64,000 bases of DNA from positions 62,001 to 126,000 of the forward strand of contig NZ_PIPI01000008.1 in NCBI RefSeq assembly GCF_003987315.1, read 5' to 3'. The stretch comes from Aliidiomarina haloalkalitolerans (lineage in GTDB: Bacteria > Pseudomonadota > Gammaproteobacteria > Enterobacterales > Alteromonadaceae). Every line of letters starts with the position of its first letter. Within the stretch, counting starts at the first letter, position 1. The translations under genes were made by a program, and so were the position numbers. The notes below the pieces were generated by a model that was not told the DNA's origin, did no database searches, and saw only the letters and a list, made by a program, of their open reading frames with translations. Below are positions 9,611 to 62,262 of the stretch, in pieces.

Positions 9611-9700
9611 TTGTAGCCCCGGTCCCTAATGCGATTAGGGACCGGGGCTGGAATGGTATTGGGGACCGGGGCTGGAATGGTATTGGGCGCGCCCAGTATG
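9611..9700. repeat. Modular repeat locus R1 (3 units plus degenerate end)
   Basis: Units at 9611-9630 (forward, degenerate left end), 9634-9654 and 9658-9678 (both reverse) with 3-bp linkers gcg and ggt. A partial unit (attgggcgcgcccagtat) follows at 9682-9699 and contains GGGCGCGCCC. The array abuts the symporter TGA. An 8-bp arm CCCAGTAT at 9692 pairs with ATACTGGG at 9710, across the stop codon of the next gene. Confidence 0.85.
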
Positions 9701-9707
9701 GCCGGGG

Positions 9708-10364
9708 CTATACTGGGACTGATTTAATCCCGCTGATGACCTTACTCACAAATGCCAAAGTTTCCCCGACAAGACGATAGTGGCTCGCATTAAGTATTTG
9801 CGTAGTGTTAACCCTACCTTTGCCAACCAGCGCAGCGAGCTCCTTGTGTGTCGACTTTTCATGGAGTAAAAAAGCGTGCAGCAGCCAAGCTTGGTCTTTC
9901 GTCAAATTACTTAACAGAGTGTCGAGATGCTGAACAAGGAGGTTAACGCAATTTAGAGCTTCATTTGTGTCAATCTCGAGCGACAATCGCTGATTTGTCA
10001 TTCTATCGAGGCCGCGCCCCGACAGCTCAAACACCTTGCCACGAATAGAATTTAATTCCGCAGTAACTTTCTGAATTTTACCCACACCAATACTTTGACG
10101 AACTTCCACGTGGGGCGATTGGTAATACAATGCTAGACGAATGAGCGTGGCGTACTTGAGCGCTTGGGAGCCCTCCGTCACGTACAACTGAAATGAATCA
10201 CCGCGGAATTTCTCGTAAAAGCTGTCACTAAGCGAACATATTGTCTCTAGAGCCACTTTAAGATTTGCTTGGACTTTATCGAAGTCCTGCTCACTAAGCT
10301 CCGTTGAGCGCACAATATCGCCGGTGATCACCGCAACGGGTTTTGAATTTACAAGCTTACTCAT
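9708..10364 (-). CDS. SatD/class III cyclase-like protein with C-terminal helix-turn-helix
   Basis: A 218-residue protein. Residues 10-140 resemble the SatD / class III nucleotidyl cyclase-like fold: ITGDIVRSTEL (13-23) matches the first metal-binding strand and FRGDSFQLY (53-61) the glycine-aspartate hairpin. Residues about 150-205 (LTKDQAWLLHAFLLHE...KELAALVGKGRVNTTQI) look like a helix-turn-helix. That layout suggests a ligand-sensing autoregulator. The three identical-geometry palindromes just upstream support this, because they end only 20 bp before the start codon. No DUF3307 membrane partner, often found with SatD genes, is present. No cyclase activity should be assumed. Function is unknown. 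Confidence 0.7.
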   Translation of the reverse strand: MSKLVNSKPVAVITGDIVRSTELSEQDFDKVQANLKVALETICSLSDSFYEKFRGDSFQLYVTEGSQALKYATLIRLALYYQSPHVEVRQSIGVGKIQKVTAELNSIRGKVFELSGRGLDRMTNQRLSLEIDTNEALNCVNLLVQHLDTLLSNLTKDQAWLLHAFLLHEKSTHKELAALVGKGRVNTTQILNASHYRLVGETLAFVSKVISGIKSVPV

Positions 10365-10383
10365 GACTATGCACTCTCAATCA

Positions 10384-10461
10384 ATGTAATCATTTTTAAT
10401 TACATCTCTAAATGTAAGTCATTTTAGTTACTTTGGCAAATGTAACCATTTTTGATTACAT
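10384..10461 (-). promoter_or_regulatory. Three phased palindromic operators upstream of the SatD-like gene
   Basis: Three copies of a 22-bp palindrome start at 10384, 10412 and 10440, exactly 28 bp apart. Each reads TGTAA-N10-TTAC with an AT-rich centre (catttt). Copies 1 and 3 are near-perfect inverted repeats; copy 2 has one weaker arm (TTACT). The block spans -20 to -97 from the start codon. It looks like a cooperative repressor or activator site. The geometry differs from TyrR boxes (TGTAAA-N6-TTTACA). Confidence 0.85.
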
Positions 10462-10467
10462 ACCCCG

Positions 10468-10512
10468 ATTCCGGCTACGGTCCGCAATCGCATTCCAGCT
10501 ACGGTTCACAAT
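10468..10512. repeat. Modular repeat locus R2 (2 forward units)
   Basis: Units at 10468-10488 and 10492-10512, both of the CTAC centre type, linker cgc, period 24 bp. They lie between the operators and the yjbE-like terminator. Confidence 0.9.
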
Positions 10513-10537
10513 GCGGTGTTGGTAAATCGCGGGCAAA

Positions 10538-10564
10538 AAAAAGCTGCGCAGTGCGCAGCTTTTT
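10538..10564 (-). terminator. Rho-independent terminator of the yjbE-like gene
   Basis: A 12-bp perfect stem (AAAAAGCTGCGC, loop AGT, GCGCAGCTTTTT) with extra A residues outside the left arm, giving a U-run on the minus transcript. It lies 29 bp after the stop codon. It could also act on the plus strand. Confidence 0.9.
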
Positions 10565-10592
10565 ATATGCAGTTAATTCGTGTCGACTCGAA

Positions 10593-10922
10593 TTAGCCGC
10601 CTACAGTAGTAGTTACTGTTGATGTCGTAGTTGGAGGCGCTACCGTAGTAGTGATAGTGCCTTCTTCTTCCTCGTCTTCATCATCGTCGTCGTCATCGAT
10701 GTCGTCAGCTGGGTTAGAAGACGATTGAGCAGCGGTAACGGTTGCAGTTGCAAACACGGTCGCTAAACCAGCGATTTGCAAACCAGTGAAACCACCGCCA
10801 GCTGCTGCGCCAGCACTTGAACCTGCTGCGCCTTGGTTTTGACCTTGTGGAGCTGGTTGAGCCATCACTGGCGTCAGTGCAAGACCTAACGCCGCTAATA
10901 CAGCAATTGTGATCTTTTTCAT
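10593..10922 (-). CDS. Small exported acidic protein, YjbE/GfcA-like
   Basis: A 109-residue protein with a clear signal peptide (MKKITIAVLAALGLALTPVMA, cleavage near residue 21). A Gly/Ala/Ser-rich segment with one hydrophobic helix follows, then a strongly acidic run (DDIDDDDDDEDEEEE, about 74-88) and a Thr/Val-rich tail (TTTVAPPTTTSTVTTTV). E. coli YjbE, the first gene of the exopolysaccharide operon yjbEFGH, has the same plan (signal peptide, Gly/Ser region, poly-Thr tail). Similarity is compositional, so the call rests also on the neighbouring yjbF and yjbGH genes. Here it comes last rather than first, 205 bp downstream of yjbGH. Confidence 0.65.
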   Translation of the reverse strand: MKKITIAVLAALGLALTPVMAQPAPQGQNQGAAGSSAGAAAGGGFTGLQIAGLATVFATATVTAAQSSSNPADDIDDDDDDEDEEEEGTITTTVAPPTTTSTVTTTVGG

Positions 10923-11046
10923 AAATTCATCCTACGTCTGATACATGTATCGTGTGCCCTGTTCGTCCTTAGAGCACGCCCTACTACTATGTATGAGTGA
11001 GTGTTAAATTGCAAATCAATTTTGTGTAAAGCCTGAGCTGTGTCGC

Positions 11047-11115
11047 ATTCCGGCCCCGGTTCGCAACGGCATTCCGGCCCCGGTCCCGAATGGCATTCGG
11101 GACCGGGGCTGGAAT
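11047..11115. repeat. Modular repeat locus R3 (3 units, forward-forward-reverse)
   Basis: Units at 11047-11067, 11071-11091 (forward, ATTCCGGC variants) and 11095-11115 (reverse), linkers ggc. The last two form a long perfect hairpin. The array lies between the yjbGH stop (13 bp away) and the yjbE-like gene. Confidence 0.9.
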
Positions 11116-11127
11116 GAGGGAGCCGAA

Positions 11128-14100
11128 TCAGCGGTTATAGTATGGCGCGCGCGGTTCGGTGACGCTGTGCAAGGTGCTGCGGCGTTGCAGCATCTGGCCG
11201 CCGTCACGGTTCAGCGGTATCCAACTAAAACCGATATGCTCTCTGCTTGGGAATACGCTCATAATGTCGAACGGGATCGTTAAGAAGAACCCTTTCGAGA
11301 AGCTGCCCTCGCCGTAATCGGTGGTTGACACGTCGGTAAACGATGCCCATGCACCGACCGTCACACCGCTGTCGAAGCGGCGCTGGAAGGTCACGTTCAC
11401 ACCTTTATCGCCGGCTAAGAACTGCCCTGCGCGCAAGGTCACCAACGAGTCGTGCAACCATGGCACTTGATAATACAGCGACACAAAGCCGGTCACTTCG
11501 TTGTAATCGCGGAAGCCAAACGCACCATTAAAGTCGCGCTGCCACACTTGGTTGACGTCAACGCCCACGGCCCAATTCCGATCAAGCGGTCGATACAACA
11601 ACTCACCACCGACACCGCCATACATGCGCTCAAGCATCCCGCCGTAGGCCATGGCATACACGTTGTCACTCAAACGGTCGTAATAGGTCGCCTGCAAGGT
11701 GTCGAGCCAAATGTCATTCAACATGTACTCGCGCACATAAGTACGGACCCGCGGCACTGGCAAGTCATCAAACGCATCAACGGTAAAATTAAATTTGTCG
11801 AAGTTATTAAACAGGTTCACGCCAACTTCACCGAACACTTCCACATTCGGCGACAACCAACGGCGCGCAAAGGCTTTCACACCCACTTGGTAGAAATGGA
11901 ACGTTTCCGGCGCACCAAAACTCTGCACCACGTGCGGCTTCATGCCGTAACTGTTGCTAAAGCGGTACTCCGGGTTATACACCCACAGTGAGTCGTCGAC
12001 AGACGCCATATCAGCGGCCTCTGAGCGCACAAACAACGGCGAGGTGTCGCGCGGGTTCACGTCTGGGTCGCGGTTGTCCACGGCGGCTTTAAACGCCTCA
12101 GCGTCGACCGTGGTTTTCACCATCGGCAAAAACGCACTTTGTTCAACAAATTCGTAAGTTTTCACCGAATCAGGCAACTCGGCAGCAAACACACGCGACG
12201 CACGGTCGAGCATGTCTTGGCCGTCACGCAAACGGCGTGGGTGCGCATACATGGTCACCACCTGCTCGTCTTCGTCGCCATGCACCAGGTAACGCCCACC
12301 CGAATACGCATACTGACGCTGCAAACTACGATTCACACTGCGCCAATTCACCGCGTCGACATACTCATACGTGCGCTCAGCGTCAGGCTGCGGCTGCACC
12401 GGCGCATTCATAATCTTCGGTTGCGACAGGGTGTTTAAATTGGTCCGCAAACTAAACCCGAACGTGAAGGTGTCGCCGCGCTCGTAGCCTGCATACAGGT
12501 CGAAAAAGTGATTCACCCGATAATTCAGGCCGACGTTAATGGGCGTGCGTGGCGTCATGTCAACGCGGGCAGCCTCATTGCTATAATCGTTACCGTCGTA
12601 CTCGACTTTTACCCTTAGCGGCGCCCACGGGGTTTGGTATTCCACCCCGGCAAACAGTGCCATTGGGCCACGGAACCACGAGTCATACTCGAACTTGCCG
12701 CCACGACCACTAAAGCCTGTAGGCCGGTCACACATACTGTCGACCAAGCTACAAAACGGCGAATCGAAGTGGTCACGGGTACCCATGCGCCCAAAACCAG
12801 CGCCAACGCTAAAATCGAACGGCCCGTATTGCTTACTGGCCACCAAATATTCCGCCGCAAACAACCCAGTACCACCAATGTCTTTAATGCCTAACGCCAC
12901 CTGCGGGAAATAGGCTGTTTCCTCCCACAAGCGCATTTTTAAATCAAAACCCTTGTCGGTGTAGATATTATTGCCACTAAAACCCGGCGAGTTACTATAC
13001 AACCGGCTTGGCACGCGCACATAAAACCCGGTCGCTTCCACCCAATCGAGCACTTGCAAACTGACCGCATAACGCTTGTATTCGTTCATGTCGGTGTAAC
13101 TGATGCGCACCTCGCCCTCTTCACCAAAGCGCGCATTAGGCATTTGCACTAAGCCTGCACCACCGTAATTGCCACTTGTTGCGCCACCAGGTGTCGCAGG
13201 GCGCGAAAGTCGTGACCAGTGATTCGCCGCCGGAGGTTCTGACGAGCTTCTTGTTATGTTTCGCTCAGCAGCCGCAGGCGCAGCTGTATTTGCAACATCA
13301 GCAACATTCCCCTCACTGCCACTGACAAAATGTTCCAGCAATGCCGGCAAGCTGTCATGTAAATGTCGATAGGCACGAGGCAAGCGCCACTTTTCAAAAC
13401 CAAGAAATAATGCGTCACCAGGCAACAACTCATGAGCTTCGGCATTGTGCATGCCCCAAGGTAGTTCTTTTATGTGGTCGGCTTCTTCACTAGAACCAGA
13501 ACCAGAACCCGCCCCAGAACCAACATGCCAAACTGTGTTTTGATTGATCACACCACCGGCGTTTGCGACACGAGATGTCGCACCAGAACCCGTTACATAC
13601 CCACGCACGGTTTGCCGCGGAATATGCGCGCTAGCCACAGCTGCCCCTGAGTCAGCGCCAGAGCCCGAGCCAGCGCCAACAGCGTCAGCAGCCCCTACGT
13701 CAGAAAGAAAGCCCAGCAACCAAATATGATCTGGCCGTGGCGGTAACCACAATTGATACTGACCTGGCGGTAATAAAGGGTTGTCGGCAATGTGTTGACG
13801 CGCATCGGCAATATCAATGCCAGCATAAGGCTGAAATCCTAACTGCCACTGACGAACTTGCGCGGCCATGGCGTCGGCCTTTGCCGCTTTTGCCGCATTG
13901 TCCGCCCCACCTTTGCCGCGCCAATAATTAGCGAGTCCATTTAAGTCGGCCAACACAGCTAAGCGCGCTGCTTCAACCTCAGCTTGGCGATCAAGCAGAA
14001 TCAGTCGTGCTTGCGGCCAATACACCTCGTGTACTTCTGCAGACGAATGTTCACCCGCGAGCGCATGCTGGCCATTGGCAATCACATATTCCAGCAGTTG

Positions 14101-14343
14101 TGACAGGCGCACCGGCTCGGCAATACTTAGCTCGACGTTATCGTTAATGCGAATATGGCGCATGGCCTGCTCTGTGCTTGCCGCTTCCGACGCTTCCGCG
14201 CCCGCCACAGCAGCGCTCCCCGCTACAGCACTGCCCGCAACAACAGCAGTCTCACCCGCATAAGCCACACCAACAAAACCAGTACTCAAACCTCCAAAAC
14301 ATGCAAGCGCAACCGCGCAGGCCACAGCAGTTCGTTTCATCAT
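11128..14343 (-). CDS. YjbG-YjbH (GfcC-GfcD) fusion, exopolysaccharide outer-membrane protein
   Basis: A 1071-residue protein. A signal peptide (1-29) precedes a GfcC/YjbG-like domain at about 60-345 (includes SQLLEYVIANGQHAL and LPPGQYQLWLPPRPDHIWLLG). A Gly/Ser/Ala-rich linker follows to about 385. Residues 388-1071 (GNYGGAGLVQMPNARFGEEG onward) are a complete YjbH/GfcD beta-barrel lipoprotein-like domain. In E. coli YjbG (about 245 residues) and YjbH (about 698) are separate genes. The fusion implies the two act together in the periplasm and outer membrane. The start codon directly follows the yjbF stop with no gap. Ser/Gly runs such as GAGSGSGAD occur within the GfcC part and linker. The family's role in polysaccharide export is supported genetically, but the mechanism is unclear. 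Confidence 0.85.
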   Translation of the reverse strand: MMKRTAVACAVALACFGGLSTGFVGVAYAGETAVVAGSAVAGSAAVAGAEASEAASTEQAMRHIRINDNVELSIAEPVRLSQLLEYVIANGQHALAGEHSSAEVHEVYWPQARLILLDRQAEVEAARLAVLADLNGLANYWRGKGGADNAAKAAKADAMAAQVRQWQLGFQPYAGIDIADARQHIADNPLLPPGQYQLWLPPRPDHIWLLGFLSDVGAADAVGAGSGSGADSGAAVASAHIPRQTVRGYVTGSGATSRVANAGGVINQNTVWHVGSGAGSGSGSSEEADHIKELPWGMHNAEAHELLPGDALFLGFEKWRLPRAYRHLHDSLPALLEHFVSGSEGNVADVANTAAPAAAERNITRSSSEPPAANHWSRLSRPATPGGATSGNYGGAGLVQMPNARFGEEGEVRISYTDMNEYKRYAVSLQVLDWVEATGFYVRVPSRLYSNSPGFSGNNIYTDKGFDLKMRLWEETAYFPQVALGIKDIGGTGLFAAEYLVASKQYGPFDFSVGAGFGRMGTRDHFDSPFCSLVDSMCDRPTGFSGRGGKFEYDSWFRGPMALFAGVEYQTPWAPLRVKVEYDGNDYSNEAARVDMTPRTPINVGLNYRVNHFFDLYAGYERGDTFTFGFSLRTNLNTLSQPKIMNAPVQPQPDAERTYEYVDAVNWRSVNRSLQRQYAYSGGRYLVHGDEDEQVVTMYAHPRRLRDGQDMLDRASRVFAAELPDSVKTYEFVEQSAFLPMVKTTVDAEAFKAAVDNRDPDVNPRDTSPLFVRSEAADMASVDDSLWVYNPEYRFSNSYGMKPHVVQSFGAPETFHFYQVGVKAFARRWLSPNVEVFGEVGVNLFNNFDKFNFTVDAFDDLPVPRVRTYVREYMLNDIWLDTLQATYYDRLSDNVYAMAYGGMLERMYGGVGGELLYRPLDRNWAVGVDVNQVWQRDFNGAFGFRDYNEVTGFVSLYYQVPWLHDSLVTLRAGQFLAGDKGVNVTFQRRFDSGVTVGAWASFTDVSTTDYGEGSFSKGFFLTIPFDIMSVFPSREHIGFSWIPLNRDGGQMLQRRSTLHSVTEPRAPYYNR

Positions 14344-42523: not shown

Positions 42524-42568
42524 GTTAGGAACCGGGGCTGGAATCACATTGTGAACCGTAGCTGGAAT
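42524..42568. repeat. Modular repeat locus R4 (2 reverse units)
   Basis: Units at 42524-42544 (GGGG type) and 42548-42568 (GTAG type), linker cac. The array ends with GCTAACCC, a flank also found after R6 and (shortened) R9. Confidence 0.88.
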
Positions 42569-42632: not shown

Positions 42633-42677
42633 ATTGGGGACCGGGGCTGGAATGGCATTCCAGCCCCGGTCCGCAAT
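42633..42677. repeat. Modular repeat locus R5 (inverted pair)
   Basis: A reverse unit (42633-42653) and a forward unit (42657-42677) joined by ggc, forming an almost perfect 21-bp stem with a 3-nt loop. Confidence 0.9.
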
Positions 42678-42794
42678 GAGCACATTCAGCGATCGCTGAC
42701 AGTTTTTGGACGTGCATCTTCGTTGGCCTTTGCTAAAGTGAACGCAGCTTCAATGTCGAAGCGTTACATTTCCGAACCTAAAAAGGAGGTTTAC

Positions 42795-44306
42795 ATGGAA
42801 GTTCAAATCGTTCATCACGGTGCGGCTCAGGGCGTGACCGGTTCTTGTCACGAGCTTCGGCTGCCCAACGGTCAGGCGGTGCTCATAGATATTGGTTTGT
42901 TTCAGGGGGCGGAAACGGAGTCGGCGGCGAACTCGTTCACTGCCGCGATGGACGCGGAGTCACGCGAACGGATGCAACAGGCGATCGAATTCGACATTAG
43001 CGACATTGAGGCGCTGGTCATCACCCACTGCCACATCGACCACGTCGGCCGCCTGCCCTGGTTGCTTATTGCCGGTTATCGCGGGCCGATTTATTGCACC
43101 GCCGCCACTGCGCATTTGCTGCCGATGGTCATTGAAGACGCCCTGAAAGTTGGCATTACCCGCAATTCGCAGTTAATTAGCGCGGTGCTGAAACTGCTCG
43201 ACGGCCTGCTGCAACCGCTCGACTATAAAGAGTGGGCGCAGGTCAGCGAGCCGCTTCGTGTGCGTTTTCGTCAAGCCGGCCACATTCTTGGCTCGGCGTA
43301 TGTGGAATGCGACATTGACACCGGCGAGGAGCTGCAGCGGGTGGTGTTTTCGGGCGACCTTGGTTGCAAGAATTCGCCGCTACTGCCCGACCCTGAGCCG
43401 CTTGAGTTCGCCGATGTGCTGGTTTTGGAAAGCACCTATGGCGACAAGAATCACGAAAGTCGCCTAGAGCGGCAAGACCGCCTGCGGCAGGTGATTGAGC
43501 ATTGTGTGGCCGACCGCGGCGCGGTGCTGATTCCGGCGTTTAGTATCGGCCGCACGCAAGAGCTGCTGTATGAGCTTGAGGATATTATTCATGGGTATCA
43601 GGCTGCGGGTTTGGGGGTTGCTGCGGGGGCGGCGGTTGCTGCAGACTCAATGGCGGAAAACTCAGTGGAGGAAAACCCAGTAAGCGACATTTGGGACAAT
43701 ATAATGGTTGTAGTCGACTCGCCAATGGCTGCGGAATTTACGCACCAATACCGAAAAATGAAGGCGTTGTGGGACGAAGAGGCTCTTGAGCGTGTGGCGG
43801 AGAACCGGCACCCGTTGAATTTTGCGCGGTTGCATATTGTCGAAACTCACGACGAACATTTGCGCTTGGTGAACTACCTGCGCAGTACCGGCGACCCGTG
43901 CATTGTCATTGCCGCCAGCGGTATGTGCACCGGCGGCCGTATGGTGAATTATTTAAAAGCCTTGCTGCCCGACCCGCGCACCGACGTGTTATTTGTTGGC
44001 TTTCAAGCGCGAGGTACACCCGGCCACGACATTCAGAAATATGGCCCACGCGGCGGCTATGTCATGCTCGACAACGAGCGCGTCGACATTAAAGCGCAAA
44101 TTCACACCCTCGGCGGCTACTCGGCACACGCCGACCAAGACGAGCTCATCGAGTTTATCGCCAACGCTGCCTATGTCGGCCACGTCCGCCTCGTGCACGG
44201 TGATCCCGACGTCCAGCGCGCCTTCGCCGACACCCTGCGCACCCGCTTCCCCGGCCTCCCCGTCACCTGCGCGTGTGATTCGGGACCGGGGCTGGAATGC
44301 GGTTAG
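42795..44306 (+). CDS. MBL-fold beta-CASP nuclease (RNA-specificity domain)
   Basis: A 503-residue metallo-beta-lactamase/beta-CASP protein. Metal motifs are THCHIDHVGRLPW (H78, H80, D82, H83), SGDLGCKNSPLLP and GYSAHADQDELI. ASGMCTGGRMVNYLKALLPD is the beta-CASP motif of RNA-processing members. It begins at an ATG with a textbook AAGGAGG seven bases upstream (42795), not at the earlier frame start. A low-complexity insert (GVAAGAAVAADSMAENSVEENP, in two parts GVAAGAAVAAD and SMAENSVEENP) interrupts the region after HGYQAAG. The last residues, SGPGLECG and the stop, are encoded by repeat locus R6. An RNase role is family-based inference. Confidence 0.9.
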   Translation: MEVQIVHHGAAQGVTGSCHELRLPNGQAVLIDIGLFQGAETESAANSFTAAMDAESRERMQQAIEFDISDIEALVITHCHIDHVGRLPWLLIAGYRGPIYCTAATAHLLPMVIEDALKVGITRNSQLISAVLKLLDGLLQPLDYKEWAQVSEPLRVRFRQAGHILGSAYVECDIDTGEELQRVVFSGDLGCKNSPLLPDPEPLEFADVLVLESTYGDKNHESRLERQDRLRQVIEHCVADRGAVLIPAFSIGRTQELLYELEDIIHGYQAAGLGVAAGAAVAADSMAENSVEENPVSDIWDNIMVVVDSPMAAEFTHQYRKMKALWDEEALERVAENRHPLNFARLHIVETHDEHLRLVNYLRSTGDPCIVIAASGMCTGGRMVNYLKALLPDPRTDVLFVGFQARGTPGHDIQKYGPRGGYVMLDNERVDIKAQIHTLGGYSAHADQDELIEFIANAAYVGHVRLVHGDPDVQRAFADTLRTRFPGLPVTCACDSGPGLECG

Positions 44307-44322
44307 GGACCGGGGCTGGAAT
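44278..44322. repeat. Modular repeat locus R6 (2 reverse units) overlapping the beta-CASP 3' end
   Basis: Units at 44278-44298 and 44302-44322, linker gcg. The first unit encodes the protein's C-terminal residues and the second provides its TAG stop. It ends with the flank GCTAACCC. Confidence 0.92.
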
Positions 44323-45392: not shown

Positions 45393-45426
45393 ATTCCAGC
45401 TACGGGTTCTACCGGGCGCGCCTAAT
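45393..45426. repeat. Modular repeat remnant R7
   Basis: One forward CTAC-type unit (attccagctacgggttctac) runs into CGGGCGCGCCTAAT. The GGGCGCGCC element is shared with the degenerate end of R1 and, in part, R14. Confidence 0.75.
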
Positions 45427-45481: not shown

Positions 45482-46783
45482 ATGAAACTATCGTTACTCG
45501 CTTTATCACTTTGCGCCGCTTCGGCCGCATTCACCTTGCCAACATTTGCCGCAGGCTCCACGGAACCGGCTCGCATCGACACCAACCTCGAACAGCGCGT
45601 CATCGAATGGCGCCGCGACATTCACCAACACCCCGAGCTGAGCAATCGCGAATTCCGCACCGCTGCATTGGTTGCTGAACACCTCGAGGCGCTCGGCATG
45701 GAAGTGCACACCGGCATTGCCCACACCGGCGTCGTCGGTATTTTACGCGGCGCAAAGCCCGGTCCTACTGTCGCCTTGCGCGCAGACATGGACGCCCTGC
45801 CCGTACGGGAACAAACCGGCCTGCCATTTGCATCCACCGTCACCGCCGAGTTTAACGGCGCCGAAGTCCCCGTCATGCACGCTTGCGGCCACGACATGCA
45901 CGTCGCCATGCTCATGGGCGCGGCGGAATATTTAGCGCAAAACCGCGACGACATTAGCGGCTCGGTCATGTTCATTTTCCAACCTGCTGAAGAAGGCGCG
46001 CCAGCTGGCGAAGAAGGTGGTGCGCAACTTATGATCAAAGAAGGTATCTTCGAACGTTTCGAGCGCCCAGACGCAATCTTCGGCATTCACGTCGGTTCCA
46101 TGAGCCACACCGGCCACGTCGGCTACCGCTCCGGCCCAATCATGGCCTCGTCTGACCGCTTCAACGTTCGTGTCCGCGGTGAACAAACTCACGGCTCGCG
46201 CCCATGGGGCGGCGTCGACCCCATCGTCGCGGCAGCAGCTATTGTCACGAACAGCCAAAGTATTGTCAGCCGCAAGCTCGACCTTACAAAAGCGCCAGCC
46301 GTGCTGAGTTTCGGAGTTATTCAAGGTGGTGTGCGCAACAATATTATCCCTGACGAGGTTTACCTTGAGGGAACTATGCGTAACTTCGACATGGACACGC
46401 GCGCGCAAATGTTCGAGAAGTTTACCCGCGTTGCCGAGTCAACTGCTGCTGCACACGGCGCTACAGCCGAAGTGGTTATTAACGAGGGATATCGGGTCAC
46501 TATCAATAGCCCCGATTTGATGGAAAGGATGCTACCCACCACGCGCGCGGTCGTCGGCGATGCGTACTTAACGGAAGCCTCTCTCGGCACGGCCTCGGAA
46601 GACTTCTCGTTCTTTGCCCTCGAGGTACCCGGCAAGTATGTGTTTCTTGGTGCAACGCCTTACGGCCAAGATCCTGCAACGGCTCCGGGCAACCATTCGC
46701 CATTCTTCAACCCTGACGAAGCGGCTATGAAAGTCGGCACCGAGCTCTTTATCAACTGGACGCTAAACTTTTCGGCGGAGTAA
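45482..46783 (+). CDS. Exported M20 family amidohydrolase/peptidase
   Basis: A 433-residue zinc hydrolase with a signal peptide (MKLSLLALSLCAASAAFTLPTFAAG). M20D blocks are WRRDIHQHPELSNREFRTA, LRADMDALPVREQTG (metal Asp), HACGHDMHVAMLMGAA, QPAEEG with the catalytic Glu pair and GIHVGS. The family includes hippurate hydrolases, N-acyl amino acid hydrolases and IAA-amide hydrolases. Here the enzyme is periplasmic. It converges on the M14 peptidase gene, the gap being exactly filled by repeat pair R8, whose first base is the last base of this TAA. The neighbouring peptidase and TonB receptor suggest peptide or amide scavenging. Confidence 0.92.
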   Translation: MKLSLLALSLCAASAAFTLPTFAAGSTEPARIDTNLEQRVIEWRRDIHQHPELSNREFRTAALVAEHLEALGMEVHTGIAHTGVVGILRGAKPGPTVALRADMDALPVREQTGLPFASTVTAEFNGAEVPVMHACGHDMHVAMLMGAAEYLAQNRDDISGSVMFIFQPAEEGAPAGEEGGAQLMIKEGIFERFERPDAIFGIHVGSMSHTGHVGYRSGPIMASSDRFNVRVRGEQTHGSRPWGGVDPIVAAAAIVTNSQSIVSRKLDLTKAPAVLSFGVIQGGVRNNIIPDEVYLEGTMRNFDMDTRAQMFEKFTRVAESTAAAHGATAEVVINEGYRVTINSPDLMERMLPTTRAVVGDAYLTEASLGTASEDFSFFALEVPGKYVFLGATPYGQDPATAPGNHSPFFNPDEAAMKVGTELFINWTLNFSAE

Positions 46784-46827
46784 TTCGGGACCGGGGCTGG
46801 AATGCCATTCCAGCCCCGGTCCGCAAT
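46783..46827. repeat. Modular repeat locus R8 (inverted pair between two stop codons)
   Basis: A reverse unit (46783-46803) and a forward unit (46807-46827), linker gcc. The pair overlaps the M20 stop codon by one base and ends one base before the M14 stop codon. It forms a hairpin that could end transcription in both directions. Confidence 0.92.
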
Positions 46828-51261: not shown

Positions 51262-51354
51262 ATTGCGGACCGTAGCTGGAATGGCATTAGGGACCGTAGC
51301 TGGAATGGCATTAGGGACCGTAGCTGGAATCGCATTAGGGACCGTAGCTGGAAT
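51262..51354. repeat. Modular repeat locus R9 (4 reverse units, all GTAG type)
   Basis: Units start at 51262, 51286, 51310 and 51334 with exact 24-bp period. Three are identical (attagggaccgtagctgg core), suggesting local duplication. The array ends with GCTAACC. It lies between fecR-like and receptor genes. Confidence 0.93.
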
Positions 51355-53085: not shown

Positions 53086-53226
53086 ATTCCAGCTACGGTT
53101 CGGAATCGCATTCCAGCCCCGGTCCCTAATGCCATTCCAGCTACGGGCTACAATGCCATTCCAGCTACGGGCTACAATGCCATTCCAGCTACGGGCTACA
53201 ATGCCATTCCAGCTACGGGCCACAAT
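53086..53226. repeat. Modular repeat locus R10 (6 forward units)
   Basis: Units start at 53086, 53110, 53134, 53158, 53182 and 53206, exact 24-bp period. Unit 2 is CCCC type; the other five are CTAC type. Units 3-5 are identical (variable block GCTAC) and unit 6 differs by one base, indicating recent tandem duplication. It lies between the sigma gene and the fbpC stop, 7 bp from the latter. Confidence 0.95.
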
Positions 53227-56055: not shown

Positions 56056-56148
56056 ATTGCGGACCGTAGCTGGAATGGCATTGCGGACCGGGGCTGGAAT
56101 GGCATTGCGAACCGGGGCTGGAATGCGATTCCAGCTACGGTCCCTAAT
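56056..56148. repeat. Modular repeat locus R11 (4 units inside the fbp operon)
   Basis: Units at 56056 and 56080, 56104 (reverse) and 56128 (forward), 24-bp period, linkers ggc, ggc, gcg. The last two form a long hairpin in the mRNA between fbpA and fbpB. Confidence 0.93.
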
Positions 56149-57276: not shown

Positions 57277-57302
57277 TTTACTTTACGGAGTACCTCTAAT
57301 TG

Positions 57303-57371
57303 ATTAGGGACCGGGGCTGGAATGGCATTAGGGACCGGGGCTGGAATCGCATTGCGGACCGTAGCTGGAAC
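57303..57371. repeat. Modular repeat locus R12 (3 reverse units)
   Basis: Units at 57303, 57327 and 57351, two GGGG type then one GTAG type. The third unit overlaps the first base of the phosphodiesterase-like stop codon. Confidence 0.93.
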
Positions 57372-58123
57372 TACAACACCTTGTATTTCTTAGATAACTG
57401 CGGACGTAGTTCGGCTGCACAAGAAGGCTTAAGGTGGCTAATCCAGACCTCTTTCGGGGCTCGAGATAAATTACTCAGCGTATTATCTACCATTTGCGGC
57501 GTCATATGTTTCGTTTGCACCGCAAGCTCATGCTTATCATCAGTGAACGAACACTCGATCATAAGCACATCGATTTCACCGAGCTTATTCAACTCACGGT
57601 CAAGTAAATCACCGGCTGTGGTGTCAGACGTGAACACAAAATGACTGCTGTCATCGCGCACCGAAACCCCAACAGTCGGCACCGTATGGTCTACCGGAAA
57701 CAACGTCAGCATTCCAGCCCCGGTCCCGAATGGCATTAGGGACCGTAGCTGGAATGAATCACCAGGTGCGGTTTCGATAAATTTCACAATTGGGCTCTGG
57801 GCTGTAGGTACTTTGCGAAAGTCAGGCCAAATTTCATTATTGAAAATATGCGTGGTGAGCTTCTCAATCGTGTGCGCCTGTGCGTACACCTTTACCTGGT
57901 GGTCGACCTTCTCAAACATATTGCTGAGAAACATCGGTAAAGCCGCAATGTGATCCATGTGCGAGTGCGTCAAAAAAATGTGCTCAATTTTGCGCATCTC
58001 ATCGATGCTCAGCGCGCTCAATCCGGTGCCGGCATCAATAAGGATATTCTCTCCTACTCGAATGCAAGTGCTGCCGCCGGCGGAATCGAGTCCGCCCGAG
58101 CAACCAAGAACGCGAATTGCCAT
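57371..58123 (-). CDS. MBL-fold cyclic-nucleotide phosphodiesterase-like protein with in-frame repeat insertion
   Basis: A 250-residue protein of the class II 3',5'-cyclic nucleotide phosphodiesterase-like MBL group. IRVLGCSGGLDSAGGSTC starts it, THSHMDHIAALPMFL is the metal site, and the later metal blocks are VDHTVPTVGV, FTSDTTAGD and ISHLKPS. Between ETAPGDSF and LTLFPVDHTVP, 15 residues (from repeat R13) are inserted in frame, ending FGTGAGM. Without them the length is close to 235. The insertion lies in the strand leading to the metal-binding VDHT; activity may or may not survive. It ends in R12 and follows the DUF3429 gene by three bases. Confidence 0.85.
   Translation of the reverse strand: MAIRVLGCSGGLDSAGGSTCIRVGENILIDAGTGLSALSIDEMRKIEHIFLTHSHMDHIAALPMFLSNMFEKVDHQVKVYAQAHTIEKLTTHIFNNEIWPDFRKVPTAQSPIVKFIETAPGDSFQLRSLMPFGTGAGMLTLFPVDHTVPTVGVSVRDDSSHFVFTSDTTAGDLLDRELNKLGEIDVLMIECSFTDDKHELAVQTKHMTPQMVDNTLSNLSRAPKEVWISHLKPSCAAELRPQLSKKYKVL
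57711..57755. repeat. Modular repeat pair R13 inside a coding gene
   Basis: Forward unit 57711-57731 (CCCC type) and reverse unit 57735-57755 (GTAG type), linker ggc. The 45-bp insert keeps the reading frame of the phosphodiesterase-like gene. Confidence 0.95.
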
Positions 58124-58126
58124 GAC

Positions 58127-58567
58127 TTACCCTACTCTCAACTCAGTCGCGAGCGTGATGAACCATAAAAAATGGCTTCCGGCGACGACGAATGTGACCG
58201 GTTGGCGGATTTGTTCGTACCATTTTTCGTTGACGCGGCGGATGTCGTAGCGCAACCAAATTAAATAGATGAATCCGAGTGCCGCGATTGCCCACAGCAC
58301 TGGCAAAAACGCGACCGCTCCCCACGCTGCAAGGCTTGGGAACATGCAGATTATTAGCGAGCCTTGCGGGTTCTCGAGGCGGCCCGCCATGACTAAGCCC
58401 CAATGGATGCCGCCAAGGAACGACAGAATCACAGCACTATATATAAGGAAGGCGTGCGCGAGTTGGTCCTGCCAAACACCGATTGCCCCTAAAATGGCGC
58501 TGCCCAAAAACGGTACAATGCCCGCCCATGTTAAGCGGTTCGCTGTCACTATCGTTGCTTCATTCAT
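58127..58567 (-). CDS. DUF3429 family membrane protein
   Basis: A 146-residue protein with four to five transmembrane helices and the family block AVILSFLGGIHWGLVMAG. DUF3429 proteins are widespread in proteobacteria and have no assigned function. Its stop lies three bases before the phosphodiesterase-like start, so the two are co-transcribed. Array R14 ends 17 bp upstream of its start codon, which places the promoter in or beyond the array, or makes it part of a longer transcript from the cation exchanger gene. Confidence 0.87.
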   Translation of the reverse strand: MNEATIVTANRLTWAGIVPFLGSAILGAIGVWQDQLAHAFLIYSAVILSFLGGIHWGLVMAGRLENPQGSLIICMFPSLAAWGAVAFLPVLWAIAALGFIYLIWLRYDIRRVNEKWYEQIRQPVTFVVAGSHFLWFITLATELRVG

Positions 58568-58584
58568 ATCTCTGCTCTTTCCTC

Positions 58585-58749
58585 ATTCCAGCTACGGGCT
58601 CTAATGCCATTCCAGTCCCGGTCCCTAACGCCATTCCAGCCCCGGTCCCTAATGCCATTCCAGCCCCGGTCCCTAACGCCGTTCCAGCCCCGGTCCCTAA
58701 CGCCATTCCAGCCCCGGTCCCTAACGTCATTCCAGCCCCGGTCCCTAAC
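58585..58749. repeat. Modular repeat locus R14 (7 forward units, longest array)
   Basis: Units start at 58585, 58609, 58633, 58657, 58681, 58705 and 58729, exact 24-bp period. The first is CTAC type with variable block GCTCT; the rest are CCCC type. Linkers are gcc with one gtc. GGGCGCGCGC follows directly. Both strands are open through the whole array. Confidence 0.95.
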
Positions 58750-58770
58750 GGGCGCGCGCAATGCGCGCAA

Positions 58771-59736
58771 TTAACCAGCTATGATCCACGCTAGGTAACC
58801 TACATAGGCGACGACGAAAAAGCCACCTTCGAGGCGATTAATCCGCCCTGGCCGGCGAGCCTTTTTGACGCGGAAGGCAAACAGCAAAATACATAAAGTC
58901 ATTAACGCCATTACCGCGTAGTCGCGAGTTAACACGGCCGCTTCAAGCTCGAACGGTTGAATCGCACCGGCAATTCCCACTACGGCCAAGGTATTAAATA
59001 AGTTCGATCCGATGACATTACCCAACGCCAAGTCGTGCTCATTTTTGCGAATTGCTGCGATGGCGCTCGCCAACTCCGGCAGAGACGTGCCGATGGCAAC
59101 AATGGTCAGGCCGATAACCAGGTCACTCACCCCGAATGCTTCGGCAATTTCGACCGCGCCCCACACCAAAACGCGCGAGCTTAAAATCAGCAGAACCAAG
59201 CCGATCACCAACCAAATCAAGGCTTTCTTTAATGGCATCGGGTGGCTGTCAATTTCTGCTTCGGTTTCTAATCCTAGCGCGTCTTCGCCATTCAAACCCT
59301 GTTTGATCGACCAACCCATAACCGCGAAAAATAACACCAACAAAATCCAAGCGTCACGCGCACTGATGTTGCCGTCAAAAATCAACCACCCAGCCAACAC
59401 AGTTACACCGATTAAAACCGGCATTTCTCGGCGCAATACATTCGACTGCACGGTTATCGGTGCGATTAATGCGGTAATACCGAGCACCATGCCGATGTTG
59501 GCGGTGTTCGAGCCGAACGCGTTTCCAAGCGCAAGGCCCGGGTTTCCGCCGACGGCAGCGAAAGCCGACACCACCATTTCTGGCGCTGAAGTACCGAAAC
59601 CGATGATGAGCATACCGATTAAAAGTGGCGACATGCCTAAATGTCGAGCGGTCGCGGCTGCGCCATCGATAAATCGGTCAGCGGACCAAATTAGCAAAAC
59701 CAGACCAAAAATGACTGCAACTGCTGCTAAAAGCAT
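58771..59736 (-). CDS. Sodium/calcium exchanger family protein (CaCA, YrbG-like)
   Basis: A 321-residue, ten-helix cation antiporter. The two inverted alpha repeats are present: GFGTSAPEMVVSAFAA with GNAFGSNTANIG, and AIGTSLPELASAIAA with GNVIGSNLFNTL, each with the conserved acidic residue. It probably exports Ca2+ (or another divalent cation) for Na+ or H+. It lies 16 bp after the Na/Pi cotransporter gene, so the pair is likely one unit. Confidence 0.93.
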   Translation of the reverse strand: MLLAAVAVIFGLVLLIWSADRFIDGAAATARHLGMSPLLIGMLIIGFGTSAPEMVVSAFAAVGGNPGLALGNAFGSNTANIGMVLGITALIAPITVQSNVLRREMPVLIGVTVLAGWLIFDGNISARDAWILLVLFFAVMGWSIKQGLNGEDALGLETEAEIDSHPMPLKKALIWLVIGLVLLILSSRVLVWGAVEIAEAFGVSDLVIGLTIVAIGTSLPELASAIAAIRKNEHDLALGNVIGSNLFNTLAVVGIAGAIQPFELEAAVLTRDYAVMALMTLCILLFAFRVKKARRPGRINRLEGGFFVVAYVGYLAWIIAG

Positions 59737-59752
59737 CGATATTCCTCGTTAT

Positions 59753-61327
59753 TTAATCTATCTCGTTGGTTGGATAAATTGTTGCGGCAACGTGCACGAT
59801 TCGCTTCGCGCAGTCTTCGAACAAACTAATAATGTGCAGGTAACTCGTCACTAAAGGCGCAGCCTTTTGATTGTCACGAACTTCATTCAAAAGCTCTGCA
59901 CGCCTTGCGCGACGGGCACTACGTATCGTTTCTAAGTGTGCCGCCCGCTCTTCTATACTCATGGCTTTTAAGTCACCCGTGCGGAGCAACTTCAGTAACG
60001 CCTCACGCAGCTCATCCGAAAATGCCTTTTCGATGTCATTACGCGGTAAGTTCGCCAAAATATGGAACGTTTCCCGTAGTTCGAGGCATTCTTCACGCGC
60101 CCAACTTAGATTCAGAAATTGCTCGGCAGAATCATCCAGTGGAGCCTTGGTTGCGAGTCGATTGCCAAAATCTTGGATAGTCTCAAGCAACGCTTTGGTG
60201 TCCATTTCCTCTTCGGGTTTGGGTGCGTCCGGGTCTAAAACGGTACGCCCTCGCAATAGTAACTGTTTGAAAACTCGCTTAATTTCGGAGTGCATCGCCG
60301 CTACACCCATGCTCGGAATCCCAACGACGGTGTCATCGAGGTAGCGCGGTTTAACCGAGGTTAATTCTGGTTGTTTAATCCAACGTTCGACGCGACGCAG
60401 GATTTTATCCGCCAAAAACCACATAAGTACAAGGCCGAGCAAGTTGAATAAAGTGTGATAAAGGGCCAGCCCAGTTGAAATGTTCTGCCGCCCGTCGCCT
60501 CCCGACAACCACTCAGCGACCCACCACATTGGCGCGAGCAAAATCAGCGCAATTACTGCGGTGAAAACTTTTTCGGTGACGTGCACGAGTGCGAGCCGCC
60601 GCGCGTTCGTAGTCGCGCCAATCGTCGCCAATAAGCTTGTGGCCGTGGTGCCGATGTTCGCGCCTATCACCAGCGCCGCGCCAAGCAACGGAGTCAAAAC
60701 GCCGGTTACCGATGCGGTCAAAATGATTGCGATGGCGGCTGAGGACGACTGAATTAATGCAGTTAATAGCGCACCGATGAGCACGCCGAGCACAATGCCA
60801 AACACGCCGGTGGCGCCAAGTTGTTCGATAGGAATCCAGTCGGCAACGTCGACAAAGGCGTCGCGCAGCAATCCGAGGCCGAGGAATAACACGCCAAAAC
60901 CGGTGAAAGTCATGCCTAAATGTGCGGCTCGACTGTCTTTGAAGATGAGTTTCATGAACATGCCGATGCCGATGAGCGGCAAGGCGATAAGTTCGACGCG
61001 GATTTTTAGACCGACCAACGCGACTATCCACGCGGTCATGGTGGTGCCGAGGTTACTACCGAACACGACCCACGCGGCCTGGCGTAATTTCAGCATGCCG
61101 GCGTTTGTGAAACCGAGGGTTGCGACGATCACCGCGCTACTACTTTGCACCAGTGCTGTGATGCTAAAGCCTGTAAACGCAGCTTTTAAGCGGGTTTGAG
61201 TGGAGCGTTCAAGAAATGTCGCAAGAGAATTACCAGCAGCTGCTTTCAGGCCGTCGGTCATCATGGCCATGCCTAACAGCAATAGCCCGAGGCCGCCCAA
61301 CGTCATCGTTACCGTAGTCCACGCCAT
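59753..61327 (-). CDS. Na/Pi cotransporter family protein (YjbB/NptA-like)
   Basis: A 524-residue membrane protein. Two QSSSA repeats (ALVQSSSAVIVATLGF and ALIQSSSAAIAIILTA) mark the inverted transport halves of the Na+/phosphate cotransporter family. GLLLLGMAMMTDGLKAAAG is the N-terminal block. Residues about 340-520 form a cytosolic PhoU-like helical domain (FKQLLLRG, ARRARRAELLNEVRDNQ). Relatives such as YjbB export phosphate. Co-transcription with the CaCA exchanger is likely. Array R15 lies upstream. Confidence 0.93.
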   Translation of the reverse strand: MAWTTVTMTLGGLGLLLLGMAMMTDGLKAAAGNSLATFLERSTQTRLKAAFTGFSITALVQSSSAVIVATLGFTNAGMLKLRQAAWVVFGSNLGTTMTAWIVALVGLKIRVELIALPLIGIGMFMKLIFKDSRAAHLGMTFTGFGVLFLGLGLLRDAFVDVADWIPIEQLGATGVFGIVLGVLIGALLTALIQSSSAAIAIILTASVTGVLTPLLGAALVIGANIGTTATSLLATIGATTNARRLALVHVTEKVFTAVIALILLAPMWWVAEWLSGGDGRQNISTGLALYHTLFNLLGLVLMWFLADKILRRVERWIKQPELTSVKPRYLDDTVVGIPSMGVAAMHSEIKRVFKQLLLRGRTVLDPDAPKPEEEMDTKALLETIQDFGNRLATKAPLDDSAEQFLNLSWAREECLELRETFHILANLPRNDIEKAFSDELREALLKLLRTGDLKAMSIEERAAHLETIRSARRARRAELLNEVRDNQKAAPLVTSYLHIISLFEDCAKRIVHVAATIYPTNEID

Positions 61328-61392
61328 CCGTTTCCCCTTCTACACCGTTCCTCGCCATAGAATAACTTGTTTCTTACTTGCTGGTAAGCCCC

Positions 61393-61509
61393 ATTCCGGA
61401 CCGGGGCTGGAATGCGATTAGGGACCGGGGCTGGAATGGCGTTCGGGACCGGGGCTGGAATGCGATTAGGGACCGGGGCTGGAATGGCGTTCGGGACCGG
61501 GGCTGGAAC
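61393..61509. repeat. Modular repeat locus R15 (5 reverse units)
   Basis: Units start at 61393, 61417, 61441, 61465 and 61489, all GGGG type, exact 24-bp period, linkers alternating gcg and ggc. Units alternate ATTAGGG and GTTCGGG, consistent with duplication of a 48-bp pair. It ends 9 bp from the GDT1-family stop. Confidence 0.95.
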
Positions 61510-61518
61510 GAGCCAGCG

Positions 61519-62091
61519 CTACAGCTCACTCAGTATGCTAAACAGGCCAAGCCCGACAAATACAACACAGCCAACGTAGCGTATAACATGCATTGGAACT
61601 CGGTTGGTGACCCAAGCACCGAAGAATACAACCGGCAACAATAGTAAGTTCATTCCAACCACCGCGCCTAATGCAACCGGTACAATTGTCTCATAGCGGG
61701 CGGCGAGCATCATGGTAACTATCTGAGATTTATCAGCAATTTCTGACAAGCTTAACAATAGGAAGGACGCAACAAAGGCACCGTATTTGAAATACTTCGA
61801 CGAATTGGAATCTTCATCATCGCCTTTATCAGGGCGAAGCATAGCTAAGCCCATGATAATAAAAACTATCCCCACAACGAAAGAAATCACAGAACCGGAC
61901 ATAAAGTCGCCTAACACGAAGCCTAGAGAACTCGCGATTCCATGCATAACAATAGTGGAAAGCACGACACCGGCAACAACTGCTGCGCGTTGGTTAGAAT
62001 AGCGAGCCGCTAATAACAACGCGATAAACTGTGTTTTGTCGCCTAATTCTGCTGCAGCTACTGCAATTAAAGTCGTGAAGAATTCGTTCAT
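61519..62091 (-). CDS. TMEM165/GDT1 family cation exporter (MneA-like)
   Basis: A 190-residue six-helix protein with the two diagnostic motifs ELGDKTQFIALLLAARY and EIADKSQIVTMMLAARY, the E-x-G/A-D-K-T/S repeats that bind Mn2+ or Ca2+. Bacterial members such as Vibrio MneA export manganese. A candidate Mn riboswitch was looked for upstream and not seen; instead array R16 lies about 80 bp upstream. Confidence 0.92.
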   Translation of the reverse strand: MNEFFTTLIAVAAAELGDKTQFIALLLAARYSNQRAAVVAGVVLSTIVMHGIASSLGFVLGDFMSGSVISFVVGIVFIIMGLAMLRPDKGDDEDSNSSKYFKYGAFVASFLLLSLSEIADKSQIVTMMLAARYETIVPVALGAVVGMNLLLLPVVFFGAWVTNRVPMHVIRYVGCVVFVGLGLFSILSEL

Positions 62092-62169
62092 TTCGCACCC
62101 TAGATAAAAAGCGCGAGGAGTCTAACATATTTCTTTTTATTTTTCGGCAATTTGTAATTAGGCGCACCC

Positions 62170-62262
62170 GTTAGGGACCGGGGCTGGAATGCCGTTCCAG
62201 CCCCGGTCCCGAACGCCATTCCAGCCCCGGTCCCTAATCGCGTTCCAGCCCCGGTCCGCAAT
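62170..62262. repeat. Modular repeat locus R16 (4 units, reverse then three forward)
   Basis: Units at 62170 (reverse), 62194, 62218 and 62242 (forward), 24-bp period; three of the four begin with G instead of A. The first two form an almost perfect hairpin. It lies between divergent genes. Confidence 0.93.

What the first reader, a model, noticed from the sequence alone, without database searches (positions are those of the whole stretch)
9611..62262. A 24-bp modular repeat family with about 52 units at 16 loci
Seen directly: a 21-bp unit (ATTCCAGC, then CCC or TAC, GG, a variable 5-nt block, AAT) recurs with 3-bp linkers at an exact 24-bp period in arrays of 1-7 units. Both orientations occur and many arrays contain inverted junctions forming long hairpins. 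Two centre types (CCCC/GGGG and CTAC/GTAG) mix freely. The spread is uneven: none in 0-9.6 kb, none in the 27-kb polysaccharide locus, dense in 42.5-62.3 kb. Unlike ordinary REP/BIME elements, the unit alone is not a good hairpin and the spacing is strictly modular. I do not recognise this as a named family.
Basis: partly seen in the sequence, partly recalled or inferred. Interest (0 to 1): 0.88.

Follow-up and report, generated by a model that had tools for sequence, protein, structure and literature searches.

The report
REP-like repeats clustered beside their transposase
The 24-base modules are a new family of short mobile repeats (REP type) crowded around the transposase-like gene that probably spreads them, and a sister species has a differently spelled repeat at many of the same chromosomal sites, so the sites seem to be kept while their sequence is rewritten.

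Summary
The repeat is REP-type. The genome (an Aliidiomarina species, by kinship) has one Y1/HUH gene of the RAYT kind, cut by the window's right edge (window 63257 to 64114), with units from 131 bp upstream of its start. Array density falls from 6.0 per 10 kb within 10 kb of the gene to 0.095 per 10 kb outside its contig. Its model matches the E. coli RAYT-REP structure 4ER8 best.

Of 17 genus genomes, this one and sister species G005 alone showed this transposase beside gap; G005 has a related palindrome. In 43 comparable spacers, 16 hold repeats in both species but of different type, one holds a G005-type copy in both, and 26 are empty in both (p=6e-11).

REP families, fast-evolving rayt genes and REPs crowded around rayt are published (Nunvar 2010). 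Unusual here are the mostly head-to-tail 24-bp modules, a transposase nearest to a subclass reported without REPs, and the family-wide change of type at kept sites. How modules are joined and replaced is inferred.

The parts
9610..9678 (.). array of 3 units (><<), sharing the last base of ORF 8315-9610
10468..10512 (+). array of 2 units (>>), TAC centres
11047..11115 (.). array of 3 units (>><), CCC centres
42524..42568 (-). array of 2 units (<<), followed by GCTAAC
42633..42677 (.). inverted pair (<>), CCC centres
44278..44322 (-). array of 2 units (<<), overlapping the end of ORF 42723-44306, followed by GCTAAC
45393..45413 (+). single unit followed by GGGCGCGCC (long-tail form)
46783..46827 (.). 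inverted pair (<>) filling the spacer between two convergent genes; the G015 and G005 orthologues of the left gene end in terminator-like hairpins there (by eye)
51262..51354 (-). array of 4 units (<<<<), TAC centres, followed by GCTAAC
53086..53226 (+). array of 6 units
56056..56148 (.). array of 4 units (<<<>)
57303..57371 (-). array of 3 units (<<<), sharing the last base of ORF 57371-58123 (-)
57711..57755 (.). inverted pair (><) inside ORF 57371-58123 (-)
58585..58749 (+). array of 7 units, 22 bp from the stop of the Na/Ca exchanger gene; the 3' side of that gene holds another repeat type in G012 and G015
61393..61509 (-). array of 5 units (<<<<<)
62170..62262 (.). array of 4 units (<>>>), nearest array on the 3' side of the transposase gene
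63257..64000 (-). 3' part of the Y1/HUH transposase (tnpA, RAYT-like) gene; the gene runs to C28:126114 (= window 64114), 285 aa, the only PF01797 match in the genome; further units lie at C28:126245-126363, from 131 bp upstream of its start

Best explanation
The 24-bp modules are a REP-type family of non-autonomous repeats served by the single Y1/HUH transposase-like protein (RAYT/TnpA-REP kind) encoded at the window's right edge. The effective element is an inverted pair: foot GTAG (or GGGG), stem CTGGAAT, 3-nt loop, stem ATTCCAG, foot CTAC (CCCC). Shown: the link in location, the co-occurrence of gene and repeats in two sister species, their co-divergence, the RAYT fold of the predicted model, and that at shared sites the two species hold different repeat types. 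Inferred: the protein binds the single-stranded hairpin, cleaves and rejoins next to it, adds copies preferentially near its own gene, and puts current-type units in place of older units at existing sites. Arrays then grow head-to-tail by slippage or repeated joining. Because nearly every junction reads AAY-NNN-RTT, a nascent 3' end could fold back on it and copy the unit, giving inverted units with the same 3-nt linker.
For: Only one PF01797 match in the genome, over the family cut-off, at C28:125743-126081. Arrays per 10 kb: 6.0 at 0-10 kb, 4.5 at 10-20, 1.8 at 20-30, 1.2 at 30-55, 0 at 55-75, and 0.095 outside contig C28. Of 17 genus genomes, 16 have some Y1 gene, but only G000 and G005 showed this one beside gap, and they are sisters in a gap tree (100/98). 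G005 has a related 21-mer with 56 matches per strand; G000 has 3 and the other 15 genomes none. The G000-type core has 0-2 matches in each of the 16 other genus genomes. Protein identity is 48-49%, against 82-97% for 7 of 8 neighbouring gene products and 56% for the eighth; dN 0.48 against 0.09-0.12 for four neighbours. AlphaFold model pLDDT 86, pTM 0.86; best PDB match 4ER8, the E. coli RAYT bound to a REP hairpin, E 8.8e-8. Spacer co-occupancy 16/0/1/26, p=6e-11. Adjacent head-to-tail units are more alike (0.894) than in 2000 permutations (mean 0.823, none as high).
Against: The gene is not tightly bracketed by two inverted units: the nearest on the 3' side is about 1 kb away, beyond another ORF. 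The CCC type and the G005 type lack GTAG (GGGG, GGAG). Only 46 of 145 units take part in an inverted 3-bp junction, and 11 of 18 '<>' junctions have a perfect 13-bp inner stem. The protein misses the NCBIfam RAYT cut-off (54.9 of 80 bits) and has Y, or F in G005, where 18 of 20 aligned rows have W; four more distant genus proteins also have F there. Its nearest subclass is reported without REPs (PMC6006769). Two G000 places inside genes (C28:129702 in gltB, and 137170) have no G005 unit at the corresponding place. No biochemical or expression evidence. The gradient around the gene could also reflect where insertions are tolerated.
Confidence: 0.82

Rival explanations
1. Arrays are binding sites for a sequence-specific DNA-binding protein (operator or nucleoid-protein sites), kept at fixed places by selection; the transposase-like gene is a neighbour, or is itself only a DNA-binding protein now.
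For: Sites are shared between species while the sequence changes together with the protein, as expected for a protein and its sites; rigid 24-bp spacing.
Against: Both orientations mix freely; where an upstream gene points into the spacer, units mostly sit just after its stop codon; two in-frame units lie inside gltB of G000 where G005 has none; many sites changing in the same way needs copying rather than separate point mutations (inference).
Confidence: 0.1
2. Arrays are kept as RNA elements at gene 3' ends (terminators or mRNA stabilisers); the family is selected for this and copying is incidental.
For: 28 of 31 measurable arrays lie within 81 bp of an upstream stop; at the M20 peptidase gene the array fills the whole convergent spacer where G015 and G005 have terminator-like hairpins (by eye); head-to-tail dimers with the TCCGG tail fold well (-14.3 kcal/mol).
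Against: Head-to-tail dimers with the commonest tail, TCCCT, fold poorly (-5.6 and -6.3 kcal/mol); no T-run beside the M20 array (by eye); 10 of 50 arrays lie in divergent spacers. Published REPs also lie at 3' ends, so this does not separate the two.
Confidence: 0.15
3. Plain tandem repeats (VNTR-like) grown by replication slippage, scattered by chance or by rearrangement.
For: Neighbouring head-to-tail units are unusually alike; 12 of 63 such pairs are identical.
Against: Inverted junctions use the same 3-bp linker (23 cases), and inverted neighbours are also alike (0.874, 4 of 2000 permutations as high); units are spread over 50 loci in 7 contigs and graded around one gene.
Confidence: 0.04

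Closest known systems
REP / RAYT (TnpA-REP) systems, REPtrons
   Same: Short extragenic repeats with a GTAG-footed hairpin (TAC-type pairs), one chromosomal Y1/HUH gene, co-divergence of gene and repeat, gene evolving faster than its neighbours, 3'-end location, in-frame copies inside genes
   Different: Single unit not a hairpin in this species; foot partly GGGG; arrays mostly head-to-tail with a fixed 24-bp step; gene has units close by on one side only
REPs accumulated around rayt in three marine gammaproteobacteria and Thauera (Nunvar 2010, PMC2817692, sections 7-9 read)
   Same: Repeats concentrated in a region of at most 200 kb around the transposase gene
   Different: Here also sites elsewhere in the genome, many shared with a sister species that has another repeat type
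REPINs and BIMEs, and tandem REP or REPIN clusters of P. fluorescens SBW25 (PMC3116915, passages)
   Same: Inverted pairs forming long hairpins; 13 of 59 groups joined by 3-bp linkers are plain '<>' pairs; ordered tandem clusters are known
   Different: [quoted passage not shown] the SBW25 spacings in the passages seen are 71-184 bp, not 24
TnpA-Y1 subclass 2.1 / Bertels group 1 / TIRYT
   Same: Relatives across the order (28-43% identity) mostly have NHVH, WEGR, YIELNP and 209-242 residues, and three genus proteins that group weakly (82/80) with it have NHYH and FQGRF; both motif sets resemble those listed for subclass 2.1 in Quentin 2018. This protein has NHFH, YQ, YIENNP and 285 residues
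   Different: Subclass 2.1 is reported without REP-like sequences; here a large repeat family goes with the gene

Membership tests
RAYT / TnpA-REP (protein) | HUH motif and Y-x-x-NP motif of the Y1 core | tested here: met
   NHFH and YIENNP, 61 residues apart; Pfam PF01797 over cut-off
RAYT / TnpA-REP (protein) | NP(L/V)(R/K)xG motif after the tyrosine (Nunvar 2010) | tested here: met
   NPLRAG in the sequence, read by eye
RAYT / TnpA-REP (protein) | Fold of the E. coli RAYT | tested here: met
   4ER8 ranks first in a library of 350,542 chains, E 8.8e-8, TM 0.75 by target and 0.45 by query length
RAYT / TnpA-REP (protein) | Conserved W of the W[EQ] motif | tested here: not met
   Y99 here and F in G005; W in the other 18 of 20 aligned rows; four further genus proteins outside that alignment have F
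RAYT / TnpA-REP (protein) | NCBIfam REP_Tyr_transpos cut-off of 80 bits | tested here: not met
   54.9 and 56.0 bits for the G000 and G005 proteins
RAYT / TnpA-REP (protein) | Gene bracketed by two inverted REPs | tested here: inconclusive
   4 units 131-249 bp upstream; nearest downstream array about 1 kb off, beyond another ORF
RAYT / TnpA-REP (protein) | Cleaves and joins single-stranded REP | not testable with these tools
   needs purified protein
GTAG-type REP | GT[AG]G at the foot of a hairpin | tested here: inconclusive
   Met by TAC-type '<>' pairs (9 of 18 '<>' junctions are TAC/TAC); not met by CCC-type (GGGG) or by the G005 type (GGAG)
GTAG-type REP | The single unit is palindromic and forms a hairpin | tested here: not met
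   -0.1 kcal/mol for one G000 unit; met by a G005 unit, -9.1 kcal/mol
GTAG-type REP | High copy, mainly extragenic | tested here: met
   145 units in the fetched stretches; 41 of 50 arrays outside ORFs, 9 inside ORFs of an automatic ORF call, some probably spurious
BIME (alternating REPs) | Neighbouring REPs in alternating orientation | tested here: not met
   63 of 86 three-bp junctions are head-to-tail
TIRtron / TIRYT | GGGGWSAS terminal inverted repeats flanking the gene | not tested
   no dedicated search was made

The most novel reading that the evidence does not exclude
REP sites in this genus act as lasting sockets: the same spacers, and one in-frame site inside gltB, are kept through speciation, while the transposase rewrites the repeat at each socket to the type it currently recognises. 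A dispersed repeat family thus changes sequence in concert with its enzyme, instead of spreading anew. The fixed 24-bp step is the footprint of this replace-and-join reaction.
Probability: 0.4. Interest if true: 0.82.

Novelty: new variant of a known kind. Interest (0 to 1): 0.62.

Why it matters
How RAYTs spread REPs is still described as unresolved (PMC8266576, introduction read). Here two sister species hold different repeat types at many of the same sites, with one locus where the older type survives in both. That gives a before-and-after picture of a family-wide switch and an enzyme pair for swap experiments. The regular 24-bp steps give a simple, countable product for any joining model, and the protein may extend REP partnership to a Y1 lineage thought to lack it.

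Tried and rejected
CRISPR: rejected, no unique spacers, 3-bp linkers. Structured RNA family: no Rfam match at gathering scores in the window. tRNA-related: none in the window. Plasmid or phage origin: no blastn match of the 7-unit array in plasmids or phages. Family in other genera: the tandem pattern is absent from genome contigs and viral contigs, though records near the window's own genome may be left out there; the 13-base core has at most one match in each of the 41 genomes of other genera. In genus members a looser tandem pattern (3 mismatches) gave 0-2 matches in each of 16 genomes, against 0-1 for the backward control: taken as background, with one G005 match lying on its transposase contig, which led to the G005 family. 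PDB sequence search with the two-protein profile found nothing; the fold search did. A genome-contig search for the protein, limited to two peptide patterns, gave 5 relatives, only G005's above 40% identity. The idea that local clustering around the gene is new was dropped after reading Nunvar 2010. Enrichment in one class of spacer was dropped: arrays per spacer length are similar in tandem, divergent and convergent spacers. No null model was run for closeness to stop codons. dN/dS could not be given for the transposase because synonymous sites are saturated. Replication strand or terminus effects were not resolved; only a GC-skew profile was made. The E. coli rayT locus was fetched for the tree, but my motif filter left it out together with seven genus loci and one order locus, so the tree (48 rows) has no named RAYT reference. 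Whether the other Y1 relatives of the order have repeats beside them was not tested.

Literature: searches. No paper was found with the five sequence strings tried. No paper on in-place change of REP type at shared sites appeared in the listings (20, 12 and 20 titles listed); most subscription papers are not in the library. Seen in part: PMC6006769 (abstract, sections 8, 11, 12, 15), PMC3733652 (part 1 of 8 of the text, section 15, passages), PMC2817692 (sections 7-9, passages), PMC8266576 (abstract, sections 3, 28, 29), PMC3116915, PMC8049555, PMC3686654 and PMC12306157 (passages only). Bertels 2017 was not read; its group numbers are taken from PMC6006769 and PMC8266576.
Full report
What is there. 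A 21-position profile gives 52 units in 16 arrays between window 9610 and 62262, all 36 internal junctions with 3-bp linkers. The window is G000:C28:62001-126000 of a 2.68-Mb genome in 29 contigs. The fetched stretches hold 145 units in 50 loci on 7 contigs. A loose pattern counts 144 places genome-wide, 140 of them in those stretches, so little was missed. Three-bp junctions: 63 head-to-tail, 18 '<>', 5 '><'. Seven head-to-tail neighbours are 16 bp apart, one '><' pair 15 bp and one head-to-tail pair 5 bp; the 15-16 bp cases carry a longer tail with GCGCGCC or GGCGCGC.

Organism. G005's contig is NZ_JAIUMR010000021.1, a metagenome-assembled Aliidiomarina, and G005 is in the same genus as G000. 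The species of G000 is unnamed. Lineage: Gammaproteobacteria, Alteromonadales, Idiomarinaceae.

The gene in the middle. The genome has one Y1_Tnp match: a 285-residue reading frame at C28:125257-126114, minus strand, whose 3' part is window 63257-64000. Four units lie 131 to 249 bp upstream of its start. Array density falls off with distance: 12 arrays within 10 kb, 9 at 10-20 kb, 2 at 20-30 kb, 3 at 30-55 kb, none at 55-75 kb on this contig, and 24 on the other 2.53 Mb. The contig ends 21 kb beyond the gene, and contig order is unknown, so the true neighbourhood may be wider. CCC-centre units lead on C28 (49 CCC, 32 TAC) and TAC elsewhere (11 CCC, 49 TAC; p=5e-7); 4 units have other centres. 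Plain '<>' pairs are commoner off C28 (9 of 24 loci against 2 of 26, p=0.016).

What kind of protein. HUH motif NHFH, Y motif YIENNP. The AlphaFold model (20-row alignment, pLDDT 86, pTM 0.86) matches 4ER8, the E. coli RAYT with a REP hairpin, best in the PDB, followed by IS200/IS605 transposases. In a tree of 48 Y1 proteins it groups with the G005 protein (100/96), then weakly (82/80) with three genus proteins that have NHYH and FQGRF, beside 35 rows that mostly have NHVH, WEGR and YIELNP. Both motif sets resemble those listed for subclass 2.1 in the table of Quentin 2018, for which that paper found no REP-like sequences. The tree has long branches and no named reference, so the subclass is a best reading, not a proof.

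Sister species G005. It has the same gene next to gap, 48-49% identical, while 7 of 8 neighbouring gene products are 82-97% identical and one 56%. dN is 0.48 against 0.12 (gap), 0.11 (gltB), 0.09 (gltD) and 0.12 (one more), with synonymous sites saturated in all but gltD. None of the other 15 best gap loci shows the gene within the 1.5-kb flanks; for G013 the best gap match is only 60% identical and may be a paralogue. G005 carries the 21-bp palindrome ATTCYGGCTCSGAGCCRGAAT, 56 matches on each strand as a palindrome must; G000 has 3 and the other 15 genomes none. A profile finds 62 units in the fetched G005 stretches, 8 of them on the 13-kb contig with the gene (p about 8e-10). A second G005 cluster lies at C2:187-243 kb, away from that contig as assembled. 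G005 inverted pairs read GGAG-CCGGAAT-4 nt-ATTCCGG-CTCC where G000 reads GTAG-CTGGAAT-3 nt-ATTCCAG-CTAC, so the two families look homologous (sequence reading).

Same sites, different spelling. G000 stretches were chosen for G000-type units and G005 stretches for G005-type units, except one G000 stretch (C23:88000-96000) taken because it holds G005-type copies. Of 24 G000 loci off contig C28, 17 correspond to a place where G005 has its own type: 13 in paired intervals under 0.7 kb, 3 in intervals of 2.4-5.6 kb, and 1 placed by eye (C23:61255 or 55672). The other 7 are at contig ends, without fetched counterpart, inside ORFs or ambiguous. On C28, 5 of 26 loci correspond: tnpA-gap, gap-gltB, one place inside gltB, gltD-next gene, and one more. 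Two G000 places inside genes, C28:129702 in gltB and 137170, have no G005 unit at the corresponding place. Among 43 syntenic spacers that could be paired strictly, 16 are occupied in both, 0 in G000 only, 1 in G005 only and 26 in neither (p=6e-11; with spacers of at least 70 bp in both, 15/0/1/19, p=5e-9). The odd one is C23:91925-92121, where G000 keeps a G005-type copy inside near-identical DNA; so the G005 type was probably present in the common ancestor and the G000 type is the newer one. At some sites flank similarity runs up to the element edge, clearest at C1:763633; at others the spacer alignment is poor (11 sites). Limit: the table only covers stretches that hold repeats, so G000-only sites are under-counted; C28:104-125 kb, the dense part of the window, has no counterpart in the fetched G005 stretches. 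For two of its genes I looked further: the G005 M20 peptidase gene is elsewhere (C1:130 kb) with a terminator-like hairpin and no unit, and the Na/Ca exchanger has no G005 match at E<=1e-60. The dense part is therefore best read as newer growth near the gene; this is an inference.

A third and fourth case. G012 and G015 carry GTTYCACCCCTGGGGCGYAAC (64 forward and 71 reverse matches; 40 and 55), with one match in G006 and none in the other 14 genomes. It agrees with a G000 CCC-type unit at 15 of 21 positions (by eye). In G012 there are 48 units in the 19 kb around its own Y1 gene, many with a 24-bp spacer (45-bp period), and every G012 place listed lies on C4:983-1159 kb, which contains that gene, or on C6:111-184 kb (the list is not complete). 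The 3' sides of gap and of the Na/Ca exchanger carry units in G012 and G015 too, although the next gene after gap is not gltB within the flanks seen there. So the 3' side of gap holds repeats in four species, with three repeat types.

Place relative to genes. Of 50 arrays, 26 are in tandem spacers, 10 divergent, 5 convergent, 9 inside ORFs of an automatic call; 28 of 31 measured distances to an upstream stop are 81 bp or less, 3 of them overlapping and 6 zero (unit sharing the last base of the stop codon). In gltB two units add residues in frame relative to G005, and another unit sits at the same place in both species with each species' own type.

How it probably works. The constant 3-nt linker at head-to-tail, '<>' and '><' junctions says that units are joined at a fixed point whatever their orientation. 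Slippage explains longer head-to-tail runs (neighbours 0.894 identical against 0.823 in permutations) but not inverted joins, whose units are also alike (0.874; 4 of 2000 permutations as high). A HUH enzyme that cleaves and rejoins single-stranded hairpins, or a nascent strand folding back on AAY-NNN-RTT, would give both. These steps are inference.

Known and new. Known from Nunvar 2010: rayt genes evolving faster than neighbours, co-evolution with REPs, and REPs crowded around rayt in three marine gammaproteobacteria and Thauera. Known from Di Nocera 2013: 3'-end location, REPs within genes, rarity of head-to-tail pairs, and one family clustered in blocks at few loci. Known from Bertels and Rainey 2011: ordered tandem REP and REPIN clusters. 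Not found in my searches: a family-wide change of REP type at kept sites between species, and REPs with a Y1 protein nearest to subclass 2.1 (papers read only in part). Verdict: new variant of a known kind.

Noticed in passing
G012 (L066, L124, L164) and G015 (L126, L162, L170): Another 21-bp repeat family, GTTYCACCCCTGGGGCGYAAC, in 45-bp steps around G012's own Y1 gene (L066:9301-10008); possibly related to the family studied here.
   Followed up: partly
L052 (G015:C1, near 5675): The Y1 gene copy of G015 has an open frame of only 122 residues that lacks the Y motif, although the genome is rich in the repeat: gene perhaps decayed or split by assembly.
   Followed up: no
G000 C28:129702-129746 and 130213-130233: Repeat units inside the gltB coding sequence, in frame; the second place is shared with G005, with G005's own repeat type.
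   Followed up: partly
   Followed up: no
C28:125140-125270: A strong hairpin CTCCGCCTGAAT...ATTCAGGCGGAG lies at the 3' end of the transposase gene (sequence); either a terminator or a diverged relative of the element.
   Followed up: no
window 42569, 44323, 51355 and C28:135702: Four arrays that end with the ATTCC side outward are followed by GCTAAC, and many G005 units by NNTAAC or NNTATC: a possible shared outer boundary motif; other arrays lack it.
   Followed up: no
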